The translations under genes were made by a program, and so were the position numbers. From NCBI GenBank assembly GCA_016867715.1, contig VGIW01000020.1:1-43555 (forward strand): 43,555 nucleotides of DNA. Reading direction: 5' to 3'. Below, piece after piece: positions 9,406 through 27,345 of the stretch (position 1 is the first letter of the stretch; the number at the start of each line of letters is the position of its first letter). Source of the DNA: Candidatus Eisenbacteria bacterium (GTDB taxonomy: Bacteria; Orphanbacterota; Orphanbacteria; Orphanbacterales; Orphanbacteraceae). The notes beneath the pieces are model-generated. The model did not search any database. It saw only the letters and a list, made by a program, of their open reading frames with translations, and was not told the DNA's origin.

Positions 9406-10023
9406 TTACTTCTCGCGCCCCCTGATCGCCTCGACCGCCGTGATCGCCGCCTTCGCCGCGGCGTCGATCTCCGCTTCCTCTCCTCCCATCTGGAGGCGCC
9501 CGAACGCTCCGAAGGTCTGCACCTGCACGAGCGTCACGCGCGCCGCCTTCTCCGCCTCGTTCGCGGCAAGAGCGATGTAAGCGGCCGGCTCCGTCTCCAT
9601 GATGAAGAGAGATTGTCCCGGGAGAAGCATCGAGCCGTACCGGGTTCGGTTCACCGCTTGGGCGTGCATCGGCTCGACCGCACGGATGATCTGGCTCGAG
9701 ACGACCCTCGGACGGATCCGATCCGTTGCCTTGAGTCGTAAATAATTCAGGGCTGCTTCTCCGGCTTGGCGGACCTCTCCCTGCGCCTTGTGGTGCACCT
9801 CGAGGAGCCCGTACGCGCGCTCGACGACCTGGATGGCCGGTTGGACGGCGGTTGCCTTGAGACAGACGTCGGTGATCGTGTGAATCGGCATGCCGGGGGC
9901 GACCTCGATCCAGAGCGAGGCATCGTCCCGGACCGGCGGAAAGCCGCGCCCGGTGCACCCGGTGAACGCGGCGAGTTGTGGTTGCAGGCTGTCCAGAAAC
10001 ACGAAGGACCTGAGCTCGATCAT
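9406..10023 (-). CDS. Bacterial microcompartment (BMC) shell protein, apparent tandem-domain (BMC-T) type
   Basis: A 205-aa protein with two BMC-like halves. In the N-terminal half (about 35-95) [40 protein letters not shown] and [13 protein letters not shown] match the BMC alpha/beta layout; in the C-terminal half (about 110-203) [73 protein letters not shown] is a clear BMC domain ending in the usual Ala-rich helix. Tandem BMC proteins form pseudohexameric trimers in polyhedral shells. The first ~35 residues ([20 protein letters not shown]) precede the first domain. AGGAGG precedes ATG 10023, and a good promoter lies upstream. No other shell gene is in the window; mdh diverges from it. Confidence 0.85.
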
Positions 10024-16394: not shown

Positions 16395-17750
16395 ATGAGC
16401 GTCCTCATTCGAAACGCGGAAACGGTCGCCCTGCTCGACCCGGGACGGCGCGAGATCCGAGGAGGCTGGGTCCTCTTCGACGAGGGGGTGATCCGCGCCG
16501 TCGGCGAGCCGGGGAACGAGCCGGCGGGCGCGGGCGAGATCGTGGGCGCGCGCGGCGCGGTCGTCCTCCCCGGCCTCGTCAACACGCATCATCATTTCTT
16601 CCAGACGCTCACGCGCGCGTTCCCCGGCGCGGCCGATTCCTCTCTCTTCCCGTGGCTTCGAGCCCTCTATCCCGCCTGGGCGGGGTTGACGCGGGAGGCG
16701 GTCCGCACGGCTTCCCTCACCGCGATGGCGGAGCTCCTTCTCTCCGGCTGCACGACGACCTCGGATCACCATTATCTCTTCACTCGCGCATGCTCCGATC
16801 CGACCGACGCGACGATCGAGTCGGCGCTCGCGATCGGCATTCGCCTTCACGCGACGCGCGGAAGCATGAGCCTCTCGGAGAAGGACGGCGGCCTTCCGCC
16901 CGACTCGGTCGTCCAAGACGAGGAGACGATCCTTCGTGATTCGGTCCGCCTCATCGAGCGGTACCACGACCCTTCGCCGGGCGCGCGCGTCCGGATCGCC
17001 CTCGCCCCCTGTTCCCCCTTCTCGGTCACCGAGGACCTCATGCGGGAGACGGCGCGGATCGCCTCGTCGTACGGCGTCCGCCTCCACACGCACCTCGCGG
17101 AGACGAAGGACGAAGAGGAGTACTGCCTCGCGCGCTACGGAGTTCGGCCTCTCGACTTCCTCGAGCGCGCGGGGTGGCTCGCCGACCGGACGTGGATCGC
17201 GCACGGGATTCACTTTGAACCTCAAGAAATCGATCGGATCGGGCGCGCGCGGATGGGGGTCGCGCACTGCCCCTCCTCGAACATGAGGCTTGGATCGGGC
17301 GCCGCGCCGGTTCTCGATCTTCTCGCCGCAGGCGCGAAGGTAGGCCTCGGCGTGGACGGGTCCGCGTCGAACGACGCATCCTCGATCGCTGCGGAAGCGC
17401 GCCAGGCGCTCTTCGCCGGACGGCTCCGATACGGCGCCGAACGGGTGGCGGCGGACGAGGTCCTTCGATGGGCGACGCGCGGCGGCGCCGAGATCCTCGG
17501 GCGGGACGACATCGGCCGAATCGCCCCCGGTTTTCGCGCGGACCTCGCCCTCTTCCGCCTGGACGACATCGCGTTCTGGGGCGCCGGCGATCCGATCGCG
17601 GCCCTCCTCCTCTCGGGACCGGCGCGGGTCGATACGCTCTTCGTGGAGGGACGCGCGATCGTGCGGGAGGGACGTCTCCTCACGATCGACCTCGACCAGC
17701 ACCGCGAGCGGCACCATCTTGCCGCGCGCGCGCTCGCGGCCGGATCGTGA
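16395..17750 (+). CDS. 8-oxoguanine deaminase (amidohydrolase superfamily)
   Basis: Predicted to deaminate 8-oxoguanine to urate. The 451-aa amidohydrolase has the metal-binding LVNTHHHFFQTLTR (His65 and His67), THLAET, AHGIHF and GVDGSASND blocks. The segment RGSMSLSEKDGGLPPDSVVQ (about 154-174) is the specificity loop I associate with the 8-oxoguanine deaminase/AtzB-like clade rather than with plain guanine or cytosine deaminases. Start ATG 16395 follows a good ribosome site. It sits directly before the SsnA-YgeY-YgeW set, whose known context is anaerobic purine and urate breakdown, so urate made here could be the input of that pathway (inference). Another aminohydrolase substrate such as guanine remains possible. 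Confidence 0.85.
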   Translation: MSVLIRNAETVALLDPGRREIRGGWVLFDEGVIRAVGEPGNEPAGAGEIVGARGAVVLPGLVNTHHHFFQTLTRAFPGAADSSLFPWLRALYPAWAGLTREAVRTASLTAMAELLLSGCTTTSDHHYLFTRACSDPTDATIESALAIGIRLHATRGSMSLSEKDGGLPPDSVVQDEETILRDSVRLIERYHDPSPGARVRIALAPCSPFSVTEDLMRETARIASSYGVRLHTHLAETKDEEEYCLARYGVRPLDFLERAGWLADRTWIAHGIHFEPQEIDRIGRARMGVAHCPSSNMRLGSGAAPVLDLLAAGAKVGLGVDGSASNDASSIAAEARQALFAGRLRYGAERVAADEVLRWATRGGAEILGRDDIGRIAPGFRADLALFRLDDIAFWGAGDPIAALLLSGPARVDTLFVEGRAIVREGRLLTIDLDQHRERHHLAARALAAGS

Positions 17751-17776
17751 CGGCTCCCGGCCTCCTCTGATACGAT
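17747..17776 (+). promoter_or_regulatory. Possible promoter of the ssnA operon
   Basis: GTGACG (17747-17752), 18-nt spacer, TACGAT (17771-17776). Weak -35. If real it excludes the ATG at 17775 as a start and favours 17811. Confidence 0.4.
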
Positions 17777-17810
17777 GGCGCGACGAAGACGATCGATCGG
17801 AGGATTCGAC

Positions 17811-19145
17811 ATGCGTCCCCTCGTTCTTGGCGGCGGCACGGTCGCGACCCTCGACGCGTCGAACCGCGTGTTCGCTCCCGGCGCGGTGCGCGTCGAAGGG
17901 GACCGCATCACCCACGCCGGGTTCGATGCCGACGTCCCGACCGAGGGGGCCGACCGGATCGACGCGCGGGGGATGATCGTTCTTCCCGGGCTCTTCAACG
18001 CGCACACGCATCTCTACAGCTCGCTCGCGCGCGGGCTCGCCCCGCGCGGCGATCCGCCTGCTTCTTTCCGCGCGATCCTCGAAACGCTCTGGTGGAGATG
18101 GGATCGCCTGCTCGATGAAGACGCGATCCTTTGGAACGCGAAGGCGGGACTTCTCGAATCGATCCGGCGCGGGGTGACCGCGGTGAACGATCATCACGCG
18201 AGCCCGAACGCGGCGCGCGGCTCCCTCGACAGGATCGCGGAGGCGGCGCTCGCGATCGGAGTGCGTGTTTGTCTTTGCTACGAGGTCTCCGACCGGGACG
18301 GGCCCGCGCTTCGCGATCGGGGGATCGAGGAGAACGAGCGCTTCGCGCGGCGCGCGGCGTCCGAGCCGAACCCGCTTCTCGCGGCGACGATCGGCGCGCA
18401 CGCGTCGTTTACGCTCTCCGACGAGACGCTCGAGCGGATCGCATCTCTCTCTGCCGCCTCGGGGAGGCCGGTTCATCTTCACGTCGACGAGGGTCCCGAG
18501 GACGGCGAGGACGCGCGCGCGAGGGGAGAGCGATCGGCCGCGGCGCGCCTCGCGCGCGCGGGAATCCTCCGCGAGGGGACGATCGCCGTTCACGCGGTAC
18601 ACGCGGACGAGGAGGACGCCGCGCTCCTCGCCCTGGCGGGGGCTTTCGTCGTGCACAACCCGCGCTCGAACGGAGCGAACGCGGTGGGGCGCGCGCCGAT
18701 CGAGATGTTCCTCCGGGCCGGCGCGGCGCTCGCGCTCGGGACCGACGGCATGAGCGGCGATCTCGGAGCGGATGCCGCCGCGCTCGGTGCGGTTCACCGT
18801 TCGGCGGCGAGGGATCGCTCGATCCCGTTCGATCTTCCGTTCCAGCTCGCATGGAGAGGGAACGCGCGCCTCGCGAGCGCTCTCTTCGGAAAGCGGATGG
18901 GCGTGCTCGCCCCCGGTTGCGCGGGAGACATCGCCGCGTTCCGCTACGATCCGCCCTCGCCGATCCGCGCAGAGAACCTCGCGGCGCACTGGCAGCTCGG
19001 GATCGCCTCGCTCCCGGCCGCGCACCTGGTCGTGGCCGGAGAGCCGGTCCTCGTCGACGGGCGCATCCTCCGGATCGACGAAGAGGAGACGATGGAGGGG
19101 GCGCGCGCGGCGGCGGCGCGGCTCCATCAAGCCTTTTATAGGTGA
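17811..19145 (+). CDS. ssnA: SsnA-type putative aminohydrolase
   Basis: A 444-aa amidohydrolase of the SsnA family, found next to selenium-dependent molybdenum hydroxylases and purine-degradation genes. Family hallmarks are GLFNAHTHLYSSLARGL, PPASFRAILETLWWRWDRLLDEDA, VTAVNDHHASPNA, CLCYEVSDRDGP, IGAHASFTLSDETLE and HVDEGPED; the metal residues continue in VHAVHADE and LGTDGMSGD. ATG 17811 is preferred over an in-frame ATG at 17775 because CGGAGG lies 7 nt upstream and the peptide begins MRPLVLGGGTVATLD, the normal family start. It leads a tight operon with ygeY, ygeW, a PLP enzyme and yqeB. Exact substrate not established; a ring-opened purine intermediate is likely. Confidence 0.9.
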   Translation: MRPLVLGGGTVATLDASNRVFAPGAVRVEGDRITHAGFDADVPTEGADRIDARGMIVLPGLFNAHTHLYSSLARGLAPRGDPPASFRAILETLWWRWDRLLDEDAILWNAKAGLLESIRRGVTAVNDHHASPNAARGSLDRIAEAALAIGVRVCLCYEVSDRDGPALRDRGIEENERFARRAASEPNPLLAATIGAHASFTLSDETLERIASLSAASGRPVHLHVDEGPEDGEDARARGERSAAARLARAGILREGTIAVHAVHADEEDAALLALAGAFVVHNPRSNGANAVGRAPIEMFLRAGAALALGTDGMSGDLGADAAALGAVHRSAARDRSIPFDLPFQLAWRGNARLASALFGKRMGVLAPGCAGDIAAFRYDPPSPIRAENLAAHWQLGIASLPAAHLVVAGEPVLVDGRILRIDEEETMEGARAAAARLHQAFYR

Positions 19146-19170
19146 ACGAAAACAAAGGGGATTCACGCGC

Positions 19171-20376
19171 ATGAGGGAAGCGCTGATCGATCGAGCGGAA
19201 GGCTACCGGGAACGGATGACCCGTTTCCTACGGGATCTGATCGCGATCCCCTCGCCGAGCGGCGAAGAAGGGAAGGTCGTCGCGAGGATTGGCGAGGAGA
19301 TGGCAGCGCTCGGTTTCGACGAGGTCCGGACCGACCGGATCGGCAACATCATCGGGAGAATCGGGAAGGGCTCCCGGATCCTTCTCTTCGACTCGCACGT
19401 CGACACGGTCGGAATCGGCGATCCGGACGCGTGGCCGCACGACCCGTTCCGAGGGAAGGTCGAAGGGGAGATCGTGTTCGGACGGGGAGCGTCGGACAAC
19501 AAGGGGGGCGTCGCGGCGATGGTCTACGGCGGGCGCCTCATCCGCGACCTCGCGCTCGACGGCGGCTTCACGATCCTCGTGGTCGGCTCCGTGATGGAGG
19601 AGGACTGCGACGGCCTCTGCTACAAATCGCTGATCGAGGAGGAGAAGGTCCGCCCGGACTTCGTCGTGCTCGGGGAGGCGACGGGGCTTCGCATCTACAG
19701 GGGGCACCGCGGGCGCGTGGAGATGCGCGTCGAGACGCGCGGCCGCTCGTGCCACGCGAGCGCTCCGGAACGGGGGAAGAACGCGGTCTATCGGATGGCG
19801 CCGATCGTGCAAGGGATCGAGCGTCTCGGGCCGAAGCTTCGGACCGATCGCTTTCTCGGCAAGGGGAGCGCCGCGGTCACTCACATCGACTGCCGAACTC
19901 CCTCGCTGAACGCGGTCCCCGACCGCGCGTCGATCGTGATCGACCGCCGCCTCACCGCCGGCGAGACGAAGGCGTCCGCTCTTCGCGAGGTGCGCCGCAT
20001 CGCCGGGAAGGAGGGGAAGGTCGAGATCCTCGAGTACCGAAAGCCGAGCCACACCGGCCACGTGCTTCCGATGGAGAAGTACTTCCCCTCTTGGGTTCTT
20101 CCCGCGGACCACGCGCTCGTCCTGGCCGGCGCCGACGCCTACCGAACGCTCGTCCGCCGGAAGCCCGCGATCGGGCGATGGACCTTCTCGACGAACGGAA
20201 CCTACACGATGGGAATCGCCGGGATCCCGACGATCGGGCTCGGGCCTTCCGAGGAGCGCTTCGCCCATTCGATCCTCGACCGTTGCCCCATCAACCATCT
20301 GACCGCCGCCGCCGCCTTCTACGCGGCGCTTCCGCGCGCGCTCCGGGCGCGCCTCGAAGGAGCCGAACGGAAATGA
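19171..20376 (+). CDS. ygeY: YgeY family M20-type hydrolase (selenium metabolism-linked)
   Basis: A 401-aa M20/ArgE-like amidohydrolase. Metal and catalytic residues are visible in FDSHVDTV, FGRGASDNKGG, SVMEEDCDG and the later GPSEERFAHS; GEATGLRIYRGHRGRVEM and RSCHASAPERGKNAVYRM belong to the dimerisation lid. YgeY is defined by its constant neighbourhood with YgeW and SsnA in purine-degrading bacteria; it is predicted to open or deacylate an N-carbamoyl or ureido intermediate. Start ATG 19171 has AAAGGGG upstream. The stop overlaps the ygeW start by 4 nt. Confidence 0.88.
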   Translation: MREALIDRAEGYRERMTRFLRDLIAIPSPSGEEGKVVARIGEEMAALGFDEVRTDRIGNIIGRIGKGSRILLFDSHVDTVGIGDPDAWPHDPFRGKVEGEIVFGRGASDNKGGVAAMVYGGRLIRDLALDGGFTILVVGSVMEEDCDGLCYKSLIEEEKVRPDFVVLGEATGLRIYRGHRGRVEMRVETRGRSCHASAPERGKNAVYRMAPIVQGIERLGPKLRTDRFLGKGSAAVTHIDCRTPSLNAVPDRASIVIDRRLTAGETKASALREVRRIAGKEGKVEILEYRKPSHTGHVLPMEKYFPSWVLPADHALVLAGADAYRTLVRRKPAIGRWTFSTNGTYTMGIAGIPTIGLGPSEERFAHSILDRCPINHLTAAAAFYAALPRALRARLEGAERK

Positions 20377-21356
20377 CCACCGATCTCAAGGGACGCGACT
20401 ACATCGAGACGAGCGACTGGAGCGACGCGGAGATCGAAACCGCCCTCGCGGTCTCGCGCGACCTCAAGGAGAAGTTCCGGAGGAAAGAGCCGCACCGCTT
20501 GCTTCCCGACCGAACGATCTTTCTTCTCTTCTTCGACAAGTCGACGAGGACCAGGAACTCGTTCGAGGCGGGGATCACGCAGCTCGGCGGGCACGCGCAC
20601 TTCATCACGACGGAGACGAGCCAGATCTCCCACGGCGAGAGCCCGAGGGACACCGGCGTCATTCTCTCCCGCTACGGACACGGCATCGCGATCCGCCACG
20701 ATCTCATCCCGGGCGAGGGGAACGCCTACATGCGCGAGGTCGCCGAGCAGGCGGACAAACCGGTGATCAACATGCAATGCGACATCGACCATCCGTGCCA
20801 GACGCTCGCCGATCTCCTCACGATCCGCGAGCGCTTCGGCGAGACCCTGAAGGGGCTCAAGGTCGCGGTCTCGTGGGCCTACGCGCCGTCGTACGCCAAG
20901 CCGCTCTCCGTCCCGCAAGGGCTCGCGATGCTGCTCACGCGCTTCGGGATGGAGGTCGTCCTCGCCCACCCGCCCGAGTTCCCGCTCATGCCGCACACGC
21001 TCGAGAGGGCGCGCGCGAACGCGAAGCGCTCGGGAGGCTCCTTCCGCGTCGCCCACTCGATGGAGGAGGCGTTCGAGGGAGCGCACGTCGTCTATCCGAA
21101 GAGCTGGGGGTGCATCGATCTCTTTCGCGAGCCGGAGCGTTCGCTCGCGCTCGCGAAGAAGTACGCGCACTGGATCTGCGATGAGAAGAAGATGGCGATC
21201 GCGCGCAAGGATTCGATCTACATGCACTGCCTCCCGGCGGACCGGGGGCACGAGGTGACCGACGCGGTGATCGACGGCCCGCACTCGGTCGTGTACGACG
21301 AGGCGGAGAACCGGCTGCACACGGCGAAGGCGCTCATGGCGCTCGTAATGGAGTAG
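20373..21356 (+). CDS. ygeW: YgeW-type knotted carbamoyltransferase
   Basis: A 327-aa ornithine/aspartate-transcarbamylase-fold enzyme of the YgeW subgroup. The carbamoyl-phosphate site is FDKSTRTRNSFEAG, followed by HPCQTLADLLTIRERFG and the C-terminal HCLPADRGHEV. Subgroup features are SHGESPRDTGVILSRYGHGIAIRH and WAYAPSYAKPLSVPQG. In purine fermentation the enzyme is thought to run in the catabolic direction, giving carbamoyl phosphate for ATP synthesis from a ureido substrate. Start ATG 20373 overlaps the ygeY stop (ATGA). No carbamate kinase is in the window. Confidence 0.9.
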   Translation: MTTDLKGRDYIETSDWSDAEIETALAVSRDLKEKFRRKEPHRLLPDRTIFLLFFDKSTRTRNSFEAGITQLGGHAHFITTETSQISHGESPRDTGVILSRYGHGIAIRHDLIPGEGNAYMREVAEQADKPVINMQCDIDHPCQTLADLLTIRERFGETLKGLKVAVSWAYAPSYAKPLSVPQGLAMLLTRFGMEVVLAHPPEFPLMPHTLERARANAKRSGGSFRVAHSMEEAFEGAHVVYPKSWGCIDLFREPERSLALAKKYAHWICDEKKMAIARKDSIYMHCLPADRGHEVTDAVIDGPHSVVYDEAENRLHTAKALMALVME

Positions 21357-21361
21357 CGGCG

Positions 21362-22621
21362 ATGCGGCTCCCCCCGACGGAGACGGTTTCCGGGTTCGCG
21401 TGCCTCGCGTGCGCGCAGCTCGAACCGCCGGAGACCGAGCGTCTCACCTGCCCTTCGTGCGGGGCGAACCTCGACGTGCTCTACGATTACGAGCGGATCG
21501 CGCGAAGGATCGACCCGGACCGCCTCCGCGCGGAGCGGGATCCCTCGATCTGGCGGTATCGGGCGCTCCTTCCGCTTCGCGAGTCGAGCGGGCCGCCGCC
21601 TCTTCTCGTGGGGGGGCGGCCCCTTCTCCGCGCGCCCCGTCTCGGCGAGGCGCTCGGGATGAAGCGGGTCTTTCTTCACGACGACACCGGGAACCCGACC
21701 GCGTCGTTCAAGGACCGGGCAAGCCTCGTCGCCGCGCTTCGGGGGCGCGAGATCGGGACCGACACGGTCTCGTGCGCCTCGACCGGGAACGCCGCTTCGT
21801 CGCTCGCAGGCGTAGCCGCCGCGCTCGGGATGCGCGCGGTGATCTTCGTCCCCGAGAAGGCGCCTCTCCCCAAACTCACGCAGATCCTCCTCTACGGGGC
21901 GCGCGTCTTCCGCGTGAGGGGGACGTACGACGACGCGTTCGACCTCTGCCTCGCGGCGAGCGAGCGCTTCGGCTGGTATACCCGCTCGACCGGCGTGAAC
22001 CCATTCACGGCTGAAGGAAAAAAGACCGCCGCCTTCGAGATCGCGGAGTCGCTCGAGTGGAAGAGCCCGGACCTGGTGTTCGTTCCGACCGGGGACGGGA
22101 ACATCCTCGGAGGGGTGGGGAAGGGGTTTCAGGAGATGCGGCGGCTCGGGTGGATCGACCGCGTCCCGAGGATGATCGCGGTGCAGGCGGAAGGAGCCTC
22201 TCCTCTCGCGACGGCGTGGCGAACGGGGAGCGACGCGGTCGAGCCGGTCGCGCCCCGCACGATCGCCGACTCGATCGCGGTCGGGCGCCCGCGCGACGCG
22301 CACCGGGCGCTCCGCATGCTCCGCGAGACGGAGGGGGACGTCGTCGTCGTTCCTGACGAGGCGATTCTGGAGGCGATGCGCGAGCTCCCCTCGACGACGG
22401 GCCTCTTCGCGGAGCCCTCCGCCGCCGCCTCGCTCGCCGGGCTTCGCAAGATGCTCGCCGAGGGGCGGATCGACCCGGGCGAAACAATCGTTCTCCTCAT
22501 CACCGGGAGCGGTCTCAAGGACACGGCGACCGCCGCGCGGCTCACGGCGGAGCCTCCTCTCGTCGAGCCGCGCCTCGAGGATTTGGAGCGCGCCCTTTCC
22601 CGTGAGAAAGGGGACCGATGA
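21362..22621 (+). CDS. Threonine synthase-like PLP fold-type II enzyme with N-terminal zinc ribbon
   Basis: A 419-aa protein. A zinc ribbon (Cys14, Cys17, Cys30 and Cys33) precedes a fold-type II PLP domain with the Schiff-base lysine Lys117 in NPTASFKDRAS, CASTGNAASSLAG for phosphate binding, STGVNPFTAEGKKTAAFEIAE, PTGDGNILGG and the closing GSGLKDT. This is the architecture of threonine synthase (O-phosphohomoserine to threonine). However, it sits 5 nt after ygeW, in the position that YgeX (2,3-diaminopropionate ammonia-lyase, also fold type II) holds in other purine-degradation operons, and no other threonine-pathway gene is near. It may therefore act on a diaminopropionate-like intermediate; that is an inference from context. 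Confidence 0.8.
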   Translation: MRLPPTETVSGFACLACAQLEPPETERLTCPSCGANLDVLYDYERIARRIDPDRLRAERDPSIWRYRALLPLRESSGPPPLLVGGRPLLRAPRLGEALGMKRVFLHDDTGNPTASFKDRASLVAALRGREIGTDTVSCASTGNAASSLAGVAAALGMRAVIFVPEKAPLPKLTQILLYGARVFRVRGTYDDAFDLCLAASERFGWYTRSTGVNPFTAEGKKTAAFEIAESLEWKSPDLVFVPTGDGNILGGVGKGFQEMRRLGWIDRVPRMIAVQAEGASPLATAWRTGSDAVEPVAPRTIADSIAVGRPRDAHRALRMLRETEGDVVVVPDEAILEAMRELPSTTGLFAEPSAAASLAGLRKMLAEGRIDPGETIVLLITGSGLKDTATAARLTAEPPLVEPRLEDLERALSREKGDR

Positions 22622-23442
22622 GGATCCGCGCCACAAAGGTCGCGATCCTCGGCGCGGGAGAGGTCGCCTCGGGGGTCGCTCTTCGGCTCCATCGATGCGG
22701 CTTCTCGCTCCTTCTCACGGAGGTCGAGGAGCCGCGCGCGATCCGGCGCCTCGTCGCCTTCAGCGAGGCGGTGTTCGACGGGAGGGCGGCCGTCGAGGAG
22801 GCGCGCGCCGCCCGGGTCGTCTCGCTCGCGGAGGCGGACGCGGCGAGGGAGCGCGGCGAGATCCCGGTTCTCGTCGATTCCGAAGGCCGCGTGTGGCCCG
22901 CGTGGAATCCGGATGTGCTCGTCGACGCCCGCATGCTGAAGGGATCGCACGGGCTCTCCCGCTCGAGCGCTCCCCTCGTGATCGGCCTCGGCCCCGGCTT
23001 CACCGTCGGAGGGGACTGCCATCTCGTCATCGAGACGCTGAGAGGTCACGAGATGGGCCGCGTCCTCGCGAACGGCTCCACTGCGCCGAACACGGGGGTT
23101 CCGGCCGAGAGGGCGGGGGAAGGGGCCCGTCGGGTTTTTCGCGCTCCGACTGATGGTATCTTTAACTCCGATAGGCGATTAGGGGATCTTCTTGAAGCGG
23201 GGGATGAAGTGGCGCGGGTCGGAGAATCCCCGTGCGTGACGGCGATCGGCGGCATGCTGAGGGGCCTTCTTCGACCGGGGCTCCTCGTCCGCGCCGGGGA
23301 AAAGGTGGGGGATGTCGATCCCCGCGGGTCGCAGGTCAATCCCCACACGGTCTCCGACCGCTCGCTTGCGATCGCCGGAGGGGTTCTGGAGGCGATCCTC
23401 TCCTCCCGACCGGCGAGGGGGGAGGGCCCGCGGATTCCTTAA
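22618..23442 (+). CDS. yqeB: YqeB-like selenium-dependent molybdenum hydroxylase system protein
   Basis: A 274-aa protein of the EF2563/YqeB family. It opens with a Rossmann motif VAILGAGEVASGVALRLHRCGF, then LLTEVEEPRAIRRLVAFSEAVFDG, VDARMLKG, VIGLGPGFTVGGDCHLVIETLRGH and GIPRGSQVNPH-like GDVDPRGSQVNPHTVSDRSLAIAGGVLEA, all typical of the family. Members are thought to help mature selenium-containing molybdenum hydroxylases such as the purine/xanthine type. No hydroxylase subunit, selD or mocA is in the window, so its client must be encoded elsewhere. Start ATG 22618 overlaps the upstream stop by 4 nt; last gene of the ssnA operon. Confidence 0.88.
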   Translation: MRIRATKVAILGAGEVASGVALRLHRCGFSLLLTEVEEPRAIRRLVAFSEAVFDGRAAVEEARAARVVSLAEADAARERGEIPVLVDSEGRVWPAWNPDVLVDARMLKGSHGLSRSSAPLVIGLGPGFTVGGDCHLVIETLRGHEMGRVLANGSTAPNTGVPAERAGEGARRVFRAPTDGIFNSDRRLGDLLEAGDEVARVGESPCVTAIGGMLRGLLRPGLLVRAGEKVGDVDPRGSQVNPHTVSDRSLAIAGGVLEAILSSRPARGEGPRIP

Positions 23443-24592: not shown

Positions 24593-25915
24593 GTGCGCGC
24601 GATCGAGCTGATCGAGAAGAAGAAGCGGGGAGAGATTCTCTCGGACGAGGAGCTCGCCTTCTGGATCCGCGGGGTCGTGAGCGAGGAGATCCCCGACTAC
24701 CAGAGCGCGGCGCTCCTCATGGCGATCCGCTTCCGCGGGCTCTCGGAACGCGAGACCTTCGCGCTCACCTCGGAGATGGTCCGCTCGGGGGATGTCCTCG
24801 ATCTCTCCTTTCTCGGCGCGCCGACCGCCGACAAGCACTCGACCGGAGGCGTCGGGGACAAGCTCTCGTTTATCGTGGGACCTCTCGTCGCGGCGTGCGG
24901 CGTGAAGGTCCCCATGCTCTCCGGACGCGCGCTCGGTCATACCGGCGGAACGCTCGACAAGCTCGAGTCGATCCCCGGCTATCGAACGCGTCTTCCGACC
25001 GCGCGCTTTCTTGAGATCGTCTCCGATGTCGGGATCTCCATCGTGGGGCAGAGCGATCGCCTCGCCCCCGCCGACGGAAAGCTCTACGCGCTCCGCGACG
25101 TCACGGCCACGGTCGATTCGATCCCGCTGATCGTCTCCAGCATCCTCTCGAAGAAGATCGCGGCCGGAGCGAGCGTTCTTGTATTCGACGTGAAGCACGG
25201 GGACGGGGCGATCCTCCGCGAACCGGAGGAGGTGCGGGCGCTCGCGCGGATGCTCGTCGCGGTCGCCGAACGCCTCGGACGAGGAGCCTCGGCGCTCGTC
25301 ACCGACATGTCGGCTCCCCTCGGCCGGACGGTGGGGAACGCGCTCGAGATCGTCGAGTCGATCGAGGCCTTGCGGGGAAAGGGCGCCGCCGATATGATGG
25401 CGATCAGCATGGCTCTCGCCGCGGAGATCCTCCTCCTCACCGGACGCGCCGCGGGGGAGGAGGAGGCGCGCCGGCTTCTCGCGGGCGCGCTCGAAGAGGG
25501 ACGCGCCCTCGATGTCTTCCGAAACATGATCGCGGCGCACGGCGGCGACGCGGCGGTCGTCGATGACCCCGGCCTGCTCCCGCGGGCGCGGCTCGTTCGA
25601 GAGGTGACCGCGGGAACGGGCGGCAACGTCCTCTCTCTCTCCGCGCGCGCCGTCGGGATCGCCGCGATGCGACTCGGCGCGGGGCGAAGCCGGGTCGAGG
25701 ACGAGGTCTCCCCGGGCGCGGGGATCGAGATCATGCGAAAGCCGGGCGACGCGGTCGCGAAGGGGGATCTCCTCGCGCGCATGCACGGCGACCGCGAGGA
25801 GCGACTCGCCGCGATCGAGCCAGAAGTGCGCGGCGCCTTTCGGATCGGAGAGGGAGAAGGTCCCGATCCGCGCTTCGTCCTCGAGAACGTCCGCGGTTCG
25901 AACCAGGGAGAGTGA
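24593..25915 (+). CDS. pdp: Pyrimidine-nucleoside phosphorylase
   Basis: Reversible phosphorolysis of thymidine/uridine to base plus (deoxy)ribose-1-phosphate. The 440-aa protein has KHSTGGVGDK (81-90) for phosphate, the family signature SGRALGHTGGTLDKLE (about 110-125) and the C-terminal barrel-sandwich domain (SPGAGIEIMRKPGDAVAKGDLLARMHG). The length and Lys-containing substrate loop fit both DeoA and broader PyNP, so the exact substrate range is open. GTG 24593 follows GAGGAGGAG. It starts an operon running through hpt, deoC, a lipoprotein, a kinase-like protein and btpA with gaps of no more than 8 nt, giving a direct route from nucleoside to DeoC substrate (a phosphopentomutase is needed but is not in the window). 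Confidence 0.92.
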   Translation: MRAIELIEKKKRGEILSDEELAFWIRGVVSEEIPDYQSAALLMAIRFRGLSERETFALTSEMVRSGDVLDLSFLGAPTADKHSTGGVGDKLSFIVGPLVAACGVKVPMLSGRALGHTGGTLDKLESIPGYRTRLPTARFLEIVSDVGISIVGQSDRLAPADGKLYALRDVTATVDSIPLIVSSILSKKIAAGASVLVFDVKHGDGAILREPEEVRALARMLVAVAERLGRGASALVTDMSAPLGRTVGNALEIVESIEALRGKGAADMMAISMALAAEILLLTGRAAGEEEARRLLAGALEEGRALDVFRNMIAAHGGDAAVVDDPGLLPRARLVREVTAGTGGNVLSLSARAVGIAAMRLGAGRSRVEDEVSPGAGIEIMRKPGDAVAKGDLLARMHGDREERLAAIEPEVRGAFRIGEGEGPDPRFVLENVRGSNQGE

Positions 25916-25918
25916 GCG

Positions 25919-26488
25919 ATGCAGAGCGAGCCGGCCCGGGGCCGCATCAGCGAGGAGGAGGTCGAGGTCTACATCTCCGAGGAGGAGATCCGGAAGAAGG
26001 TCGCCGAGCTCGGGGCGATGATCACTCGGGACTACGAGGGGAAGGACCTCTTCGTCGTGGCGGTCCTTCGGGGAGCGATCTTCTTCGCCGTCGATCTCGT
26101 CCGCGCCATCGATCTTCCGCTTGTTCTCGATTTCGTTCAGATCTCGTCCTACGGCGACTCGACCGAATCGAACGGACGGGCGAAGATCACGCGCGAGCTC
26201 GACCTCTCGATCAAGGACAAGGATGTTCTCGTCGTCGAGGATATCGTCGACACGCGCCACACCCTCTTCAACCTGCTCAGCTTCCTTCGCTCCAAGTTCC
26301 CAAGGAGCATCCGCATCTGCACGCTTCTCAACAAGAGGGAACGCGCGGAGCGGGAGATCCCTCTTGACTACGTCGGCTTCTCGATCGAGAACCTGTTCGT
26401 CATCGGATACGGCCTCGACTACGCGCAGCGCTACCGGAACCTCCCCTTCGTCGGCGTGCTGCGGAAAGGGGGCGAGATCGTTCGATGA
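25919..26488 (+). CDS. hpt: Hypoxanthine phosphoribosyltransferase
   Basis: Salvages hypoxanthine/guanine to IMP/GMP with PRPP. The 189-aa protein has [19 protein letters not shown], the flexible-loop SYGDSTES, the PRPP motif [10 protein letters not shown] (103-112) and the C-terminal [22 protein letters not shown] typical of bacterial Hpt. The N-terminus is extended by a few acidic residues ([17 protein letters not shown]) as usual. Start ATG 25919 is 3 nt after the phosphorylase stop; the stop overlaps deoC by 4 nt. Cytoplasmic. Confidence 0.95.
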
Positions 26489-27345
26489 GGGATGAAGGAT
26501 CGATCGATCGGATCGTCGAGAAGGTGCTCGCGCGGCTTGGGAGGAGCGCGTCGGACGCGCCGAATCTGGACGGCCGCTCGTGCGCCTCGTGCGCGGTCCC
26601 CGGTCAATGCGCTTCGCTCTGCCCGGAGACGACCGCGACGATCGTTCGCGAAGGGGCGAACCGCGTCTCGAGCGCCTTGGGTGCGGGGAGCGTCCCAAAG
26701 GACCTCGCTCCCCTCATCGATCACACGATCCTTCGCGCGAACGCGGCCCGCGCGGAGATCGAAACGCTCGTCGACGAGGCGAAGCGGTTCCGCTTCGCGT
26801 CGGTTTGCGTGAACCCGTGCTGGGCGCGGCTCTGTCGAGACGCGCTCGAGGGGACCGGCGTTCTCGTTTGCACGGTCGTCGGCTTCCCGCTCGGAGCAAA
26901 CGCGCCGCTCACGAAAGCCTTCGAGACGCGCCGCGCCTGCTTCGACGGGGCCGAGGAGATCGACATGGTGATCAACGTCGGCGCTCTGAAGTCCGGGGAG
27001 GACGCGTTCGTCGAAAAGGAGATCCGCGGCGTCGTCGAGTCGGCCGGAGCGGGCGTCACGGTGAAGGTGATCTTGGAGACCGCCTATCTCGACAACGACG
27101 AGAAGGTCCGCGCGTGCCGGGCGGCCCTCCGCGCGCGGGCCGCCTTTGTGAAGACATCGACCGGATTCGGGCCGTCGGGCGCGACGGTCGAGGATGTGCG
27201 CCTCATGCGCGAGACGGTCGGACCGAAGATGGGCGTGAAAGCGGCCGGAGGAATCCGCTCGCGGAGCGACGCCGAGGAGATGATCCGCGCCGGAGCGAGC
27301 CGCATCGGCGCAAGCGCCTCGGTGGCGATCGTGAAGGAGGAATGA
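26485..27345 (+). CDS. deoC: Deoxyribose-phosphate aldolase with BMC-like N-terminal targeting helix and four-Cys segment
   Basis: Cleaves deoxyribose-5-phosphate to acetaldehyde and glyceraldehyde-3-phosphate. Residues ~76-286 are a complete DeoC barrel: LIDHTIL, Asp160 in [10 protein letters not shown], the Schiff-base lysine Lys223 in FVKTSTGFG and Lys252 in GVKAAGGIR. The 286-aa length exceeds the usual 220-260 because of an N-terminal extension of ~70 residues. Residues 6-19 ([14 protein letters not shown]) have hydrophobics at 7, 10, 11, 14, 15 and 18, one face of a helix, like BMC encapsulation peptides. Residues 33-46 carry Cys33, 36, 42 and 46 (CASC ... CASLC), a possible Fe-S or zinc site. 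ATG 26485 overlaps hpt by 4 nt. Targeting and metal binding are inferences. Confidence 0.93.

What the first reader, a model, noticed from the sequence alone, without database searches (positions are those of the whole stretch)
26485..27345. DeoC with a BMC encapsulation-peptide-like N-terminus plus a four-cysteine segment
Seen: ~70 extra residues before the aldolase barrel. Residues 6-19 ([14 protein letters not shown]) place hydrophobics at 7, 10, 11, 14, 15 and 18, the i/i+3/i+4/i+7 pattern of microcompartment targeting helices, followed by a disordered Ser/Ala/Asp linker. Then Cys33, 36, 42 and 46 form a compact CxxC-x5-CxxxC site. Known: DeoC makes acetaldehyde, a volatile toxic intermediate of the kind metabolosomes contain; published catalogues describe sugar-phosphate-utilising BMC loci with DeoC. 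The Cys site might bind Fe-S or zinc and is not part of classical DeoC.
Basis: partly seen in the sequence, partly recalled or inferred. Interest (0 to 1): 0.85.

Follow-up and report, generated by a model that had tools for sequence, protein, structure and literature searches.

The report
Microcompartment-tagged DeoC with ferredoxin-like cysteine box
A sugar-splitting enzyme that releases toxic acetaldehyde from DNA sugars appears to carry an address tag sending it into a protein-shelled bacterial compartment, and next to the tag sits a conserved cysteine cluster, resembling an iron-sulfur binding loop, that I did not find described.

Summary
The ORF at 26485-27345 is a single-copy DeoC whose aldolase barrel begins near residue 74. 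The first ~70 residues hold an amphipathic helix (6-19), a variable linker, a Cys box (C33-x2-C36-x5-C42-x3-C46-P) and a second short helix ending in an invariant Arg60.

The targeting reading is supported. The same genome has an HO/SPU-like microcompartment locus on another contig. Its acylating aldehyde dehydrogenase starts with a similar helix (8/14 identical). All seven genomes of this small phylum carry the extension and shell genes. 51 of 53 genomes with extended DeoC have a BMC-domain gene, against 9 of 27 with unextended DeoC. AlphaFold does not pack the helix on the barrel. The shell gene at 9406-10023 is a gated BMC-T trimer (HO-5816/CcmP type).

EP-like extensions on off-locus DeoC in HO-type genomes were already noted (Sutter 2021). 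The Cys box is the newer element: all four Cys are invariant in the phylum, Cys boxes recur in most extended DeoCs, a profile of the box matches [4Fe-4S] ferredoxin loops while its reversal does not, and a Cys box recurs on the compartment's class II aldolase. Metal binding and encapsulation are untested.

The parts
26485..27345 (+). deoC: deoxyribose-phosphate aldolase, 286 aa, with ~73-residue N-terminal extension; only copy in the genome
   Evidence: TIGR00126 273 bits at residues 74-283; single match in the genome; nearest solved folds are DERAs
26500..26541 (+). Encapsulation-peptide-like amphipathic helix, residues 6-19 ([14 protein letters not shown])
   Evidence: helix 4-20 in AF2 model at low confidence, not packed; 8/14 identical to N-terminus of the genome's BMC aldehyde dehydrogenase
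26542..26562 (+). Variable linker, residues 20-26
   Evidence: 14-57% identity to the window in the phylum versus 70-97% for the barrel; pLDDT below 50
26563..26625 (+). Cys box, residues 27-47: NLDGRSC-x2-C-x5-C-x3-C-P (C33, C36, C42, C46)
   Evidence: invariant Cys in 7/7 phylum genomes; profile matches [4Fe-4S] ferredoxin loops, reversed control does not
26626..26670 (+). Second helix and GA-x-R60 motif, residues 48-62
   Evidence: R60 50/50, G57 48/50 across extended DeoCs
26704..27333 (+). DeoC barrel, residues 74-283; D160, K223 and K252 invariant
24593..25915 (+). Pyrimidine-nucleoside/thymidine phosphorylase, same operon
   Evidence: NF004490 and TIGR02644 above cut-off; order conserved in relatives
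25919..26488 (+). Hypoxanthine phosphoribosyltransferase, overlaps the deoC start
   Evidence: TIGR01203 above cut-off
9406..10023 (-). Satellite BMC-T double-layer gated trimer shell protein (HO-5816/CcmP/CsoS1D type)
   Evidence: 5v74 HO-5816 E 3.3e-74; CcmP model 284 bits, below its cut-off of 340; present 14-23 kb from deoC in G082-G085

Best explanation
This is the acetaldehyde-producing DeoC of a nucleoside-catabolic operon. Its first ~20 residues act as an encapsulation peptide that takes it into an HO/SPU-like microcompartment encoded elsewhere in the genome. Inside, the acylating aldehyde dehydrogenase, which carries a matching N-terminal helix, would convert the acetaldehyde to acetyl-CoA. 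Between tag and barrel sits a Cys box that most likely binds a metal, by its spacing a [4Fe-4S]-type cluster. Its role is probably to organise or rigidify the tag-bearing arm or to join cargo enzymes, less likely to carry electrons. Shown by computation: anatomy, conservation, co-occurrence with shell genes, tag similarity, ferredoxin-like Cys spacing. Inferred: encapsulation, metal identity, role of the box.
For: The extension is conserved in all 7 phylum genomes. All 7 have BMC-domain genes and 6 of 7 have pentamers. The own BMC locus holds BMC-H, BMC-T, 3 BMC-P, acylating AldDH and a class II aldolase. AldDH starts YIDAIVDRVLEKLG after 6 residues; the match to DeoC 6-19 has p = 4e-4 against shuffles that keep the hydrophobic pattern. 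In two sets, extension goes with shell genes: 51/53 vs 9/27 and 35/36 vs 10/38. In 34 of 53 extended cases a shell gene lies in the fetched flank of deoC. The helix is unpacked in AF2. The Cys-box profile hits 4Fe-4S ferredoxins (best E 3.7e-4, 160 hits up to E 10) versus 4 hits, best 0.5, for the reversed profile. The class II aldolase of the same BMC has a C-terminal Cys cluster in 5 of the 6 phylum genomes where it was read.
Against: The window's deoC is not in the BMC locus; in relatives it is about 40-60 kb from it, so the link is by sequence and co-occurrence. The co-occurrence could not be confirmed under a phylogenetic control: only 2 independent supported pairs, so no power. Cys number and spacing vary widely outside the phylum, and some extended DeoCs lack the box. 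No Fer4 model gives a confident match, and AF2 shows the box disordered. The PduT-like BMC-T in this phylum has Asp where PduT homologues have the cluster Cys, which argues against an electron relay through it.
Confidence: 0.77

Rival explanations
1. The N-terminal extension is an oligomerisation or stability arm of the aldolase and has nothing to do with shells.
For: The second helix with invariant R60 may pack on the barrel or a neighbouring subunit; T. maritima DERA (3r12/3r13) aligns over more columns than the barrel alone, and from general knowledge it has an extra N-terminal helix without any BMC.
Against: The extension strongly co-occurs with shell genes; the first helix is unpacked and resembles the BMC AldDH tag; the linker is free to vary.
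Confidence: 0.13
2. The tag is genuine but the Cys box is a structural zinc site or a redox-switched disulfide cluster, not Fe-S.
For: Cys number and spacing vary (CxCxxC, CxxCxxC, Cx2Cx5Cx3C and others), which is easier for zinc or disulfides; carboxysome interiors are reported oxidising (general knowledge).
Against: Directional match to ferredoxin loops including the Pro after the last Cys, lost on reversal.
Confidence: 0.4
3. The Cys box carries a [4Fe-4S] cluster that moves electrons in the lumen, for example to recycle NADH made by the aldehyde dehydrogenase.
For: Ferredoxin-like motif; published SPU loci lack an alcohol dehydrogenase for cofactor recycling (PMC4207490).
Against: DeoC chemistry is not redox; the PduT-like shell protein of this phylum has Asp in place of the cluster Cys; a single loop rather than a full ferredoxin fold.
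Confidence: 0.1

Closest known systems
HO-type BMC with off-locus pfam01791 enzyme bearing an EP-like N-terminal extension (Sutter et al. 2021, PMC8217296)
   Same: DeoC at a different genomic place from the shell locus, EP-like N-terminus, HO-5815-like BMC-H, HO-5816-like double-layer trimer, three pentamers, AldDH and an aldolase
   Different: Small single-family phylum of seven held genomes; Cys box beside the tag, which the passages read there do not mention; nucleoside-phosphorylase operon context
SPU (sugar phosphate utilisation) BMC (Axen et al. 2014, PMC4207490; Sutter et al. 2021)
   Same: DeoC plus acylating AldDH, inferred catabolism of DNA sugars
   Different: DeoC is not in the shell locus here; RpiB was not looked for in this genome; in Neomarinimicrobiota relatives RpiB is fused to DeoC with a comparable helix in between
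Encapsulation peptides of PduP/EutE-type aldehyde dehydrogenases
   Same: N-terminal amphipathic helix of ~15 residues plus variable linker
   Different: On an aldolase, followed by a Cys box
Single-loop [4Fe-4S] ferredoxin motif (C-x2-C-x2-C-x3-C-P)
   Same: Order, last spacing and trailing Pro
   Different: Middle spacing is 5 in the window; no Fer4 Pfam match to the window protein; cluster not demonstrated

Membership tests
DeoC (TIGR00126) | Full-length match to the curated family model | tested here: met
   273 bits, cut-off 117
DeoC (TIGR00126) | Schiff-base Lys and partner Lys/Asp (E. coli K167, K201, D102 by general knowledge) | tested here: met
   K223 (KTSTG), K252 (KAAGG), D160 invariant in alignment A1; mapping to E. 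coli numbers is from memory
BMC cargo with encapsulation peptide | 15-20 residue amphipathic helix at a terminus joined by a flexible linker | tested here: met
BMC cargo with encapsulation peptide | Shell genes in the same genome | tested here: met
BMC cargo with encapsulation peptide | Similar helix on another core enzyme of that BMC | tested here: met
   AldDH N-terminus, 8/14 identical
BMC cargo with encapsulation peptide | Localisation inside the shell | not testable with these tools
   needs fusion or shell proteomics
HO-type BMC | Pentamer triplet, HO-like BMC-H and double-layer BMC-T, AldDH | tested here: met
   assignment by nearest relatives, not by the published locus-scoring HMMs
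SPU BMC | pfam01791 and pfam02502 enzymes in the shell locus | tested here: not met
   deoC lies on another contig in the window's genome and ~40-60 kb away in relatives; RpiB not sought
[4Fe-4S] ferredoxin-type site | C-x2-C-x2-C-x3-C-P | tested here: inconclusive
   window has C-x2-C-x5-C-x3-C-P; profile hits ferredoxins, reversed control does not; only weak Pfam Fer4 hits in a few members
[4Fe-4S] ferredoxin-type site | Bound cluster | not testable with these tools
   needs purified protein

The most novel reading that the evidence does not exclude
Aldolases delivered to HO/SPU-type microcompartments carry, next to their encapsulation helix, a ferredoxin-like [4Fe-4S] loop that takes part in cargo assembly or lumen redox control; in this phylum both presumed lumen aldolases (DeoC and the class II enzyme) have such a Cys box at opposite termini, implying convergent recruitment.
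Probability: 0.3. Interest if true: 0.75.

Novelty: new variant of a known kind. Interest (0 to 1): 0.5.

Why it matters
The function of the HO microcompartment, the main structural model of BMC shells, is called enigmatic in the 2021 catalogue. A tagged DeoC in a nucleoside operon, linked over tens of kilobases to an HO-like shell locus and beside purine-breakdown genes, strengthens the case that such organelles digest nucleic-acid sugars. A cysteine box conserved next to the targeting helix of its aldolases would be a new cargo feature, possibly a metal site, that can be tested directly with purified protein.

Tried and rejected
A search of the Cys segment alone in the own genome found only DeoC plus weak chance hits. 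Class II aldolases of other BMC genomes have tag-like C-terminal helices but no Cys cluster, so the shared Cys box of the two aldolases is a property of this phylum, not a general rule. Extended DeoCs do not form one supported clade, and the independent-pairs test had no power, so the co-occurrence figures are not phylogeny-corrected. Pfam gave no domain for the extension. G182, first counted as extended, has a stop codon inside the match and was removed. The idea that the protein at 9406-10023 is a degenerate BMC-like protein was rejected: it is a full double-layer trimer protein. Literature searches of the open-access library found no description of the Cys box; subscription papers and supplements were not covered.

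Full report
What is there. The ORF 26485-27345 (+) encodes 286 residues and matches the deoxyribose-phosphate aldolase model over residues 74-283 at 273 bits. It is the only DeoC in the 3.51 Mb genome. Its ATG overlaps the stop of the upstream hypoxanthine phosphoribosyltransferase gene, itself 3 bases after a pyrimidine-nucleoside phosphorylase gene. The same gene order and start are kept in relatives.

The extension is constrained. The phylum of this genome has seven held genomes in one family, and all seven carry the extension. Compared with the window, the helix 6-19 is 50-100% identical, the Cys box 27-47 67-100% and the barrel 70-97%. The linker 20-26 is 14-57% and the spacer 63-73 27-82%. 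All four cysteines are invariant. In a wider set of 50 extended DeoCs from Acidobacteriota, Myxococcota, Elusimicrobiota, Neomarinimicrobiota, Ignavibacteriota, Chloroflexota, Planctomycetota and others, Arg60 is invariant and Cys occupies position 36 in 42, position 42 in 38, position 33 in 34 and position 46 in 12.

Link to microcompartments. The genome has a shell locus on contig C31: BMC-H, tandem BMC-T, three BMC-P, an acylating aldehyde dehydrogenase and a class II aldolase. In four relatives on long contigs (G082-G085) this locus is about 40-60 kb from deoC. The BMC-H is, among natural proteins, nearest to HO-5815 of Haliangium ochraceum, and the window's own shell gene at 9406-10023 is a double-layer trimer nearest to HO-5816, present 14-23 kb from deoC in G082-G085. 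The seventh genome, G086, which gave no pentamer hit, does have BMC-domain genes, one cut by a contig end. The aldehyde dehydrogenase begins VPNDNPYIDAIVDRVLEKLG. Its helix is 8/14 identical to DeoC 6-19, p = 4e-4 against shuffles that keep the hydrophobic pattern.

Co-occurrence. Of 53 genomes with an extended DeoC, 51 have a BMC-domain gene, against 9 of 27 with an unextended one (Fisher p = 2e-9). In 119 genomes of one phylum (that of G025), 35 of 36 genuinely extended DeoCs are in genomes with pentamer genes, against 10 of 38 others (the Fisher p of 1.5e-9 was computed with G182 still in the extended group, 35/37 vs 10/37). The rows are related, and the independent-pairs test had no power. 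In 34 of the 53 extended cases a shell gene lies in the fetched flank of deoC, and in Neomarinimicrobiota DeoC is fused to RpiB with a helix between the two domains, the fusion being published for that group (PMC4207490).

Structure. AlphaFold2 with 50 sequences gives a confident barrel (above 90), a helix at 4-20 with pLDDT about 53-58, residues 17-40 below 50, and a short helix at 47-55 at about 57-63. So the first helix is not confidently packed, as expected of a tag. The second helix with Arg60 may belong structurally to the barrel or to an interface.

The Cys box. A profile of 16 boxes searched against PDB sequences returns [4Fe-4S] ferredoxins and photosystem I PsaC at the top (best E 3.7e-4, 160 hits up to E 10). 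The residue-reversed profile returns 4 hits, best E 0.5. The E-values rest on a short motif and the 16 boxes were chosen by hand, so this shows a ferredoxin-like spacing, not a cluster. The class II aldolase in the same shell locus has a C-terminal GCGGCKTC followed by an amphipathic helix. Four relatives keep a Cys tail, in G081, G082 and G084 without an obvious helix after it; in G083 the helix is kept and the cluster is not. Class II aldolases of other BMC genomes lack the cluster. The PduT-like BMC-T of this phylum has Asp at the position where BMC-T of several SPU-type loci have the Cys of a CPGKY motif, so a relay to a shell Fe-S centre is unlikely here.

What is known. Axen 2014 named SPU loci with DeoC and RpiB. 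Sutter 2021 states that some genomes with HO loci have a pfam01791 enzyme elsewhere, some with an EP-like N-terminal extension. The targeting idea is therefore a new instance of a published suggestion. I found no description of the Cys box in the open-access library.

Mechanism. Shown: anatomy, constraint, co-occurrence, tag similarity. Inferred: encapsulation, conversion of DeoC-made acetaldehyde by the co-encapsulated dehydrogenase, and a metal at the Cys box whose most likely role is structural or assembly-related. The neighbourhood fits nucleic-acid catabolism: nucleoside phosphorylase, hypoxanthine phosphoribosyltransferase, an 8-oxoguanine deaminase model above cut-off, SsnA-like (below cut-off) and YqeB above cut-off.

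Noticed in passing
window 9406-10023 (-): Satellite double-layer gated BMC-T (HO-5816/CcmP type), scored only weakly by the Pfam BMC model (24-28 bits) but 252 bits to HO-5816.
   Followed up: yes
window 16395-23442 (+): Purine-breakdown-like cluster: 8-oxoguanine deaminase (above cut-off), SsnA-like, YgeW-like carbamoyltransferase, a PLP enzyme called threonine synthase by the models, and YqeB (selenium-dependent Mo cofactor) upstream of the nucleoside operon.
   Followed up: partly
L088 1258-2037 (-); L132, L138, L134, L136, L130: Class II aldolase of the BMC locus: C-terminal Cys tail and targeting helix come and go independently among genera (Cys tail without helix in G081/G082, helix without cluster in G083).
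   Followed up: partly
L088 2590-3153 (-); L130, L132, L134, L136: PduT-like BMC-T with Asp (DPGKY/F) where other loci have the CPGKY cysteine, in all phylum members read.
   Followed up: partly
L151, L156, L157, L162, L167: DeoCs in one group of the phylum of G025 carry a further upstream segment like 'ALITPAARDRARELGI' before the Cys box.
   Followed up: no
L015, L016, L020, L023, L024, L043, L067, L171: RpiB-DeoC fusions with an amphipathic helix as interdomain linker; L171 has the helix but no Cys box.
   Followed up: partly
window 19431-21356 (+): Carbamoyltransferase ORF has ~315 residues before the domain; in L135 the match is split over three ORFs, so it may be two genes or frame-shifted.
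   Followed up: no
L100, L109, L118: Class II aldolase matches crossing stop codons in three related genomes.
   Followed up: no
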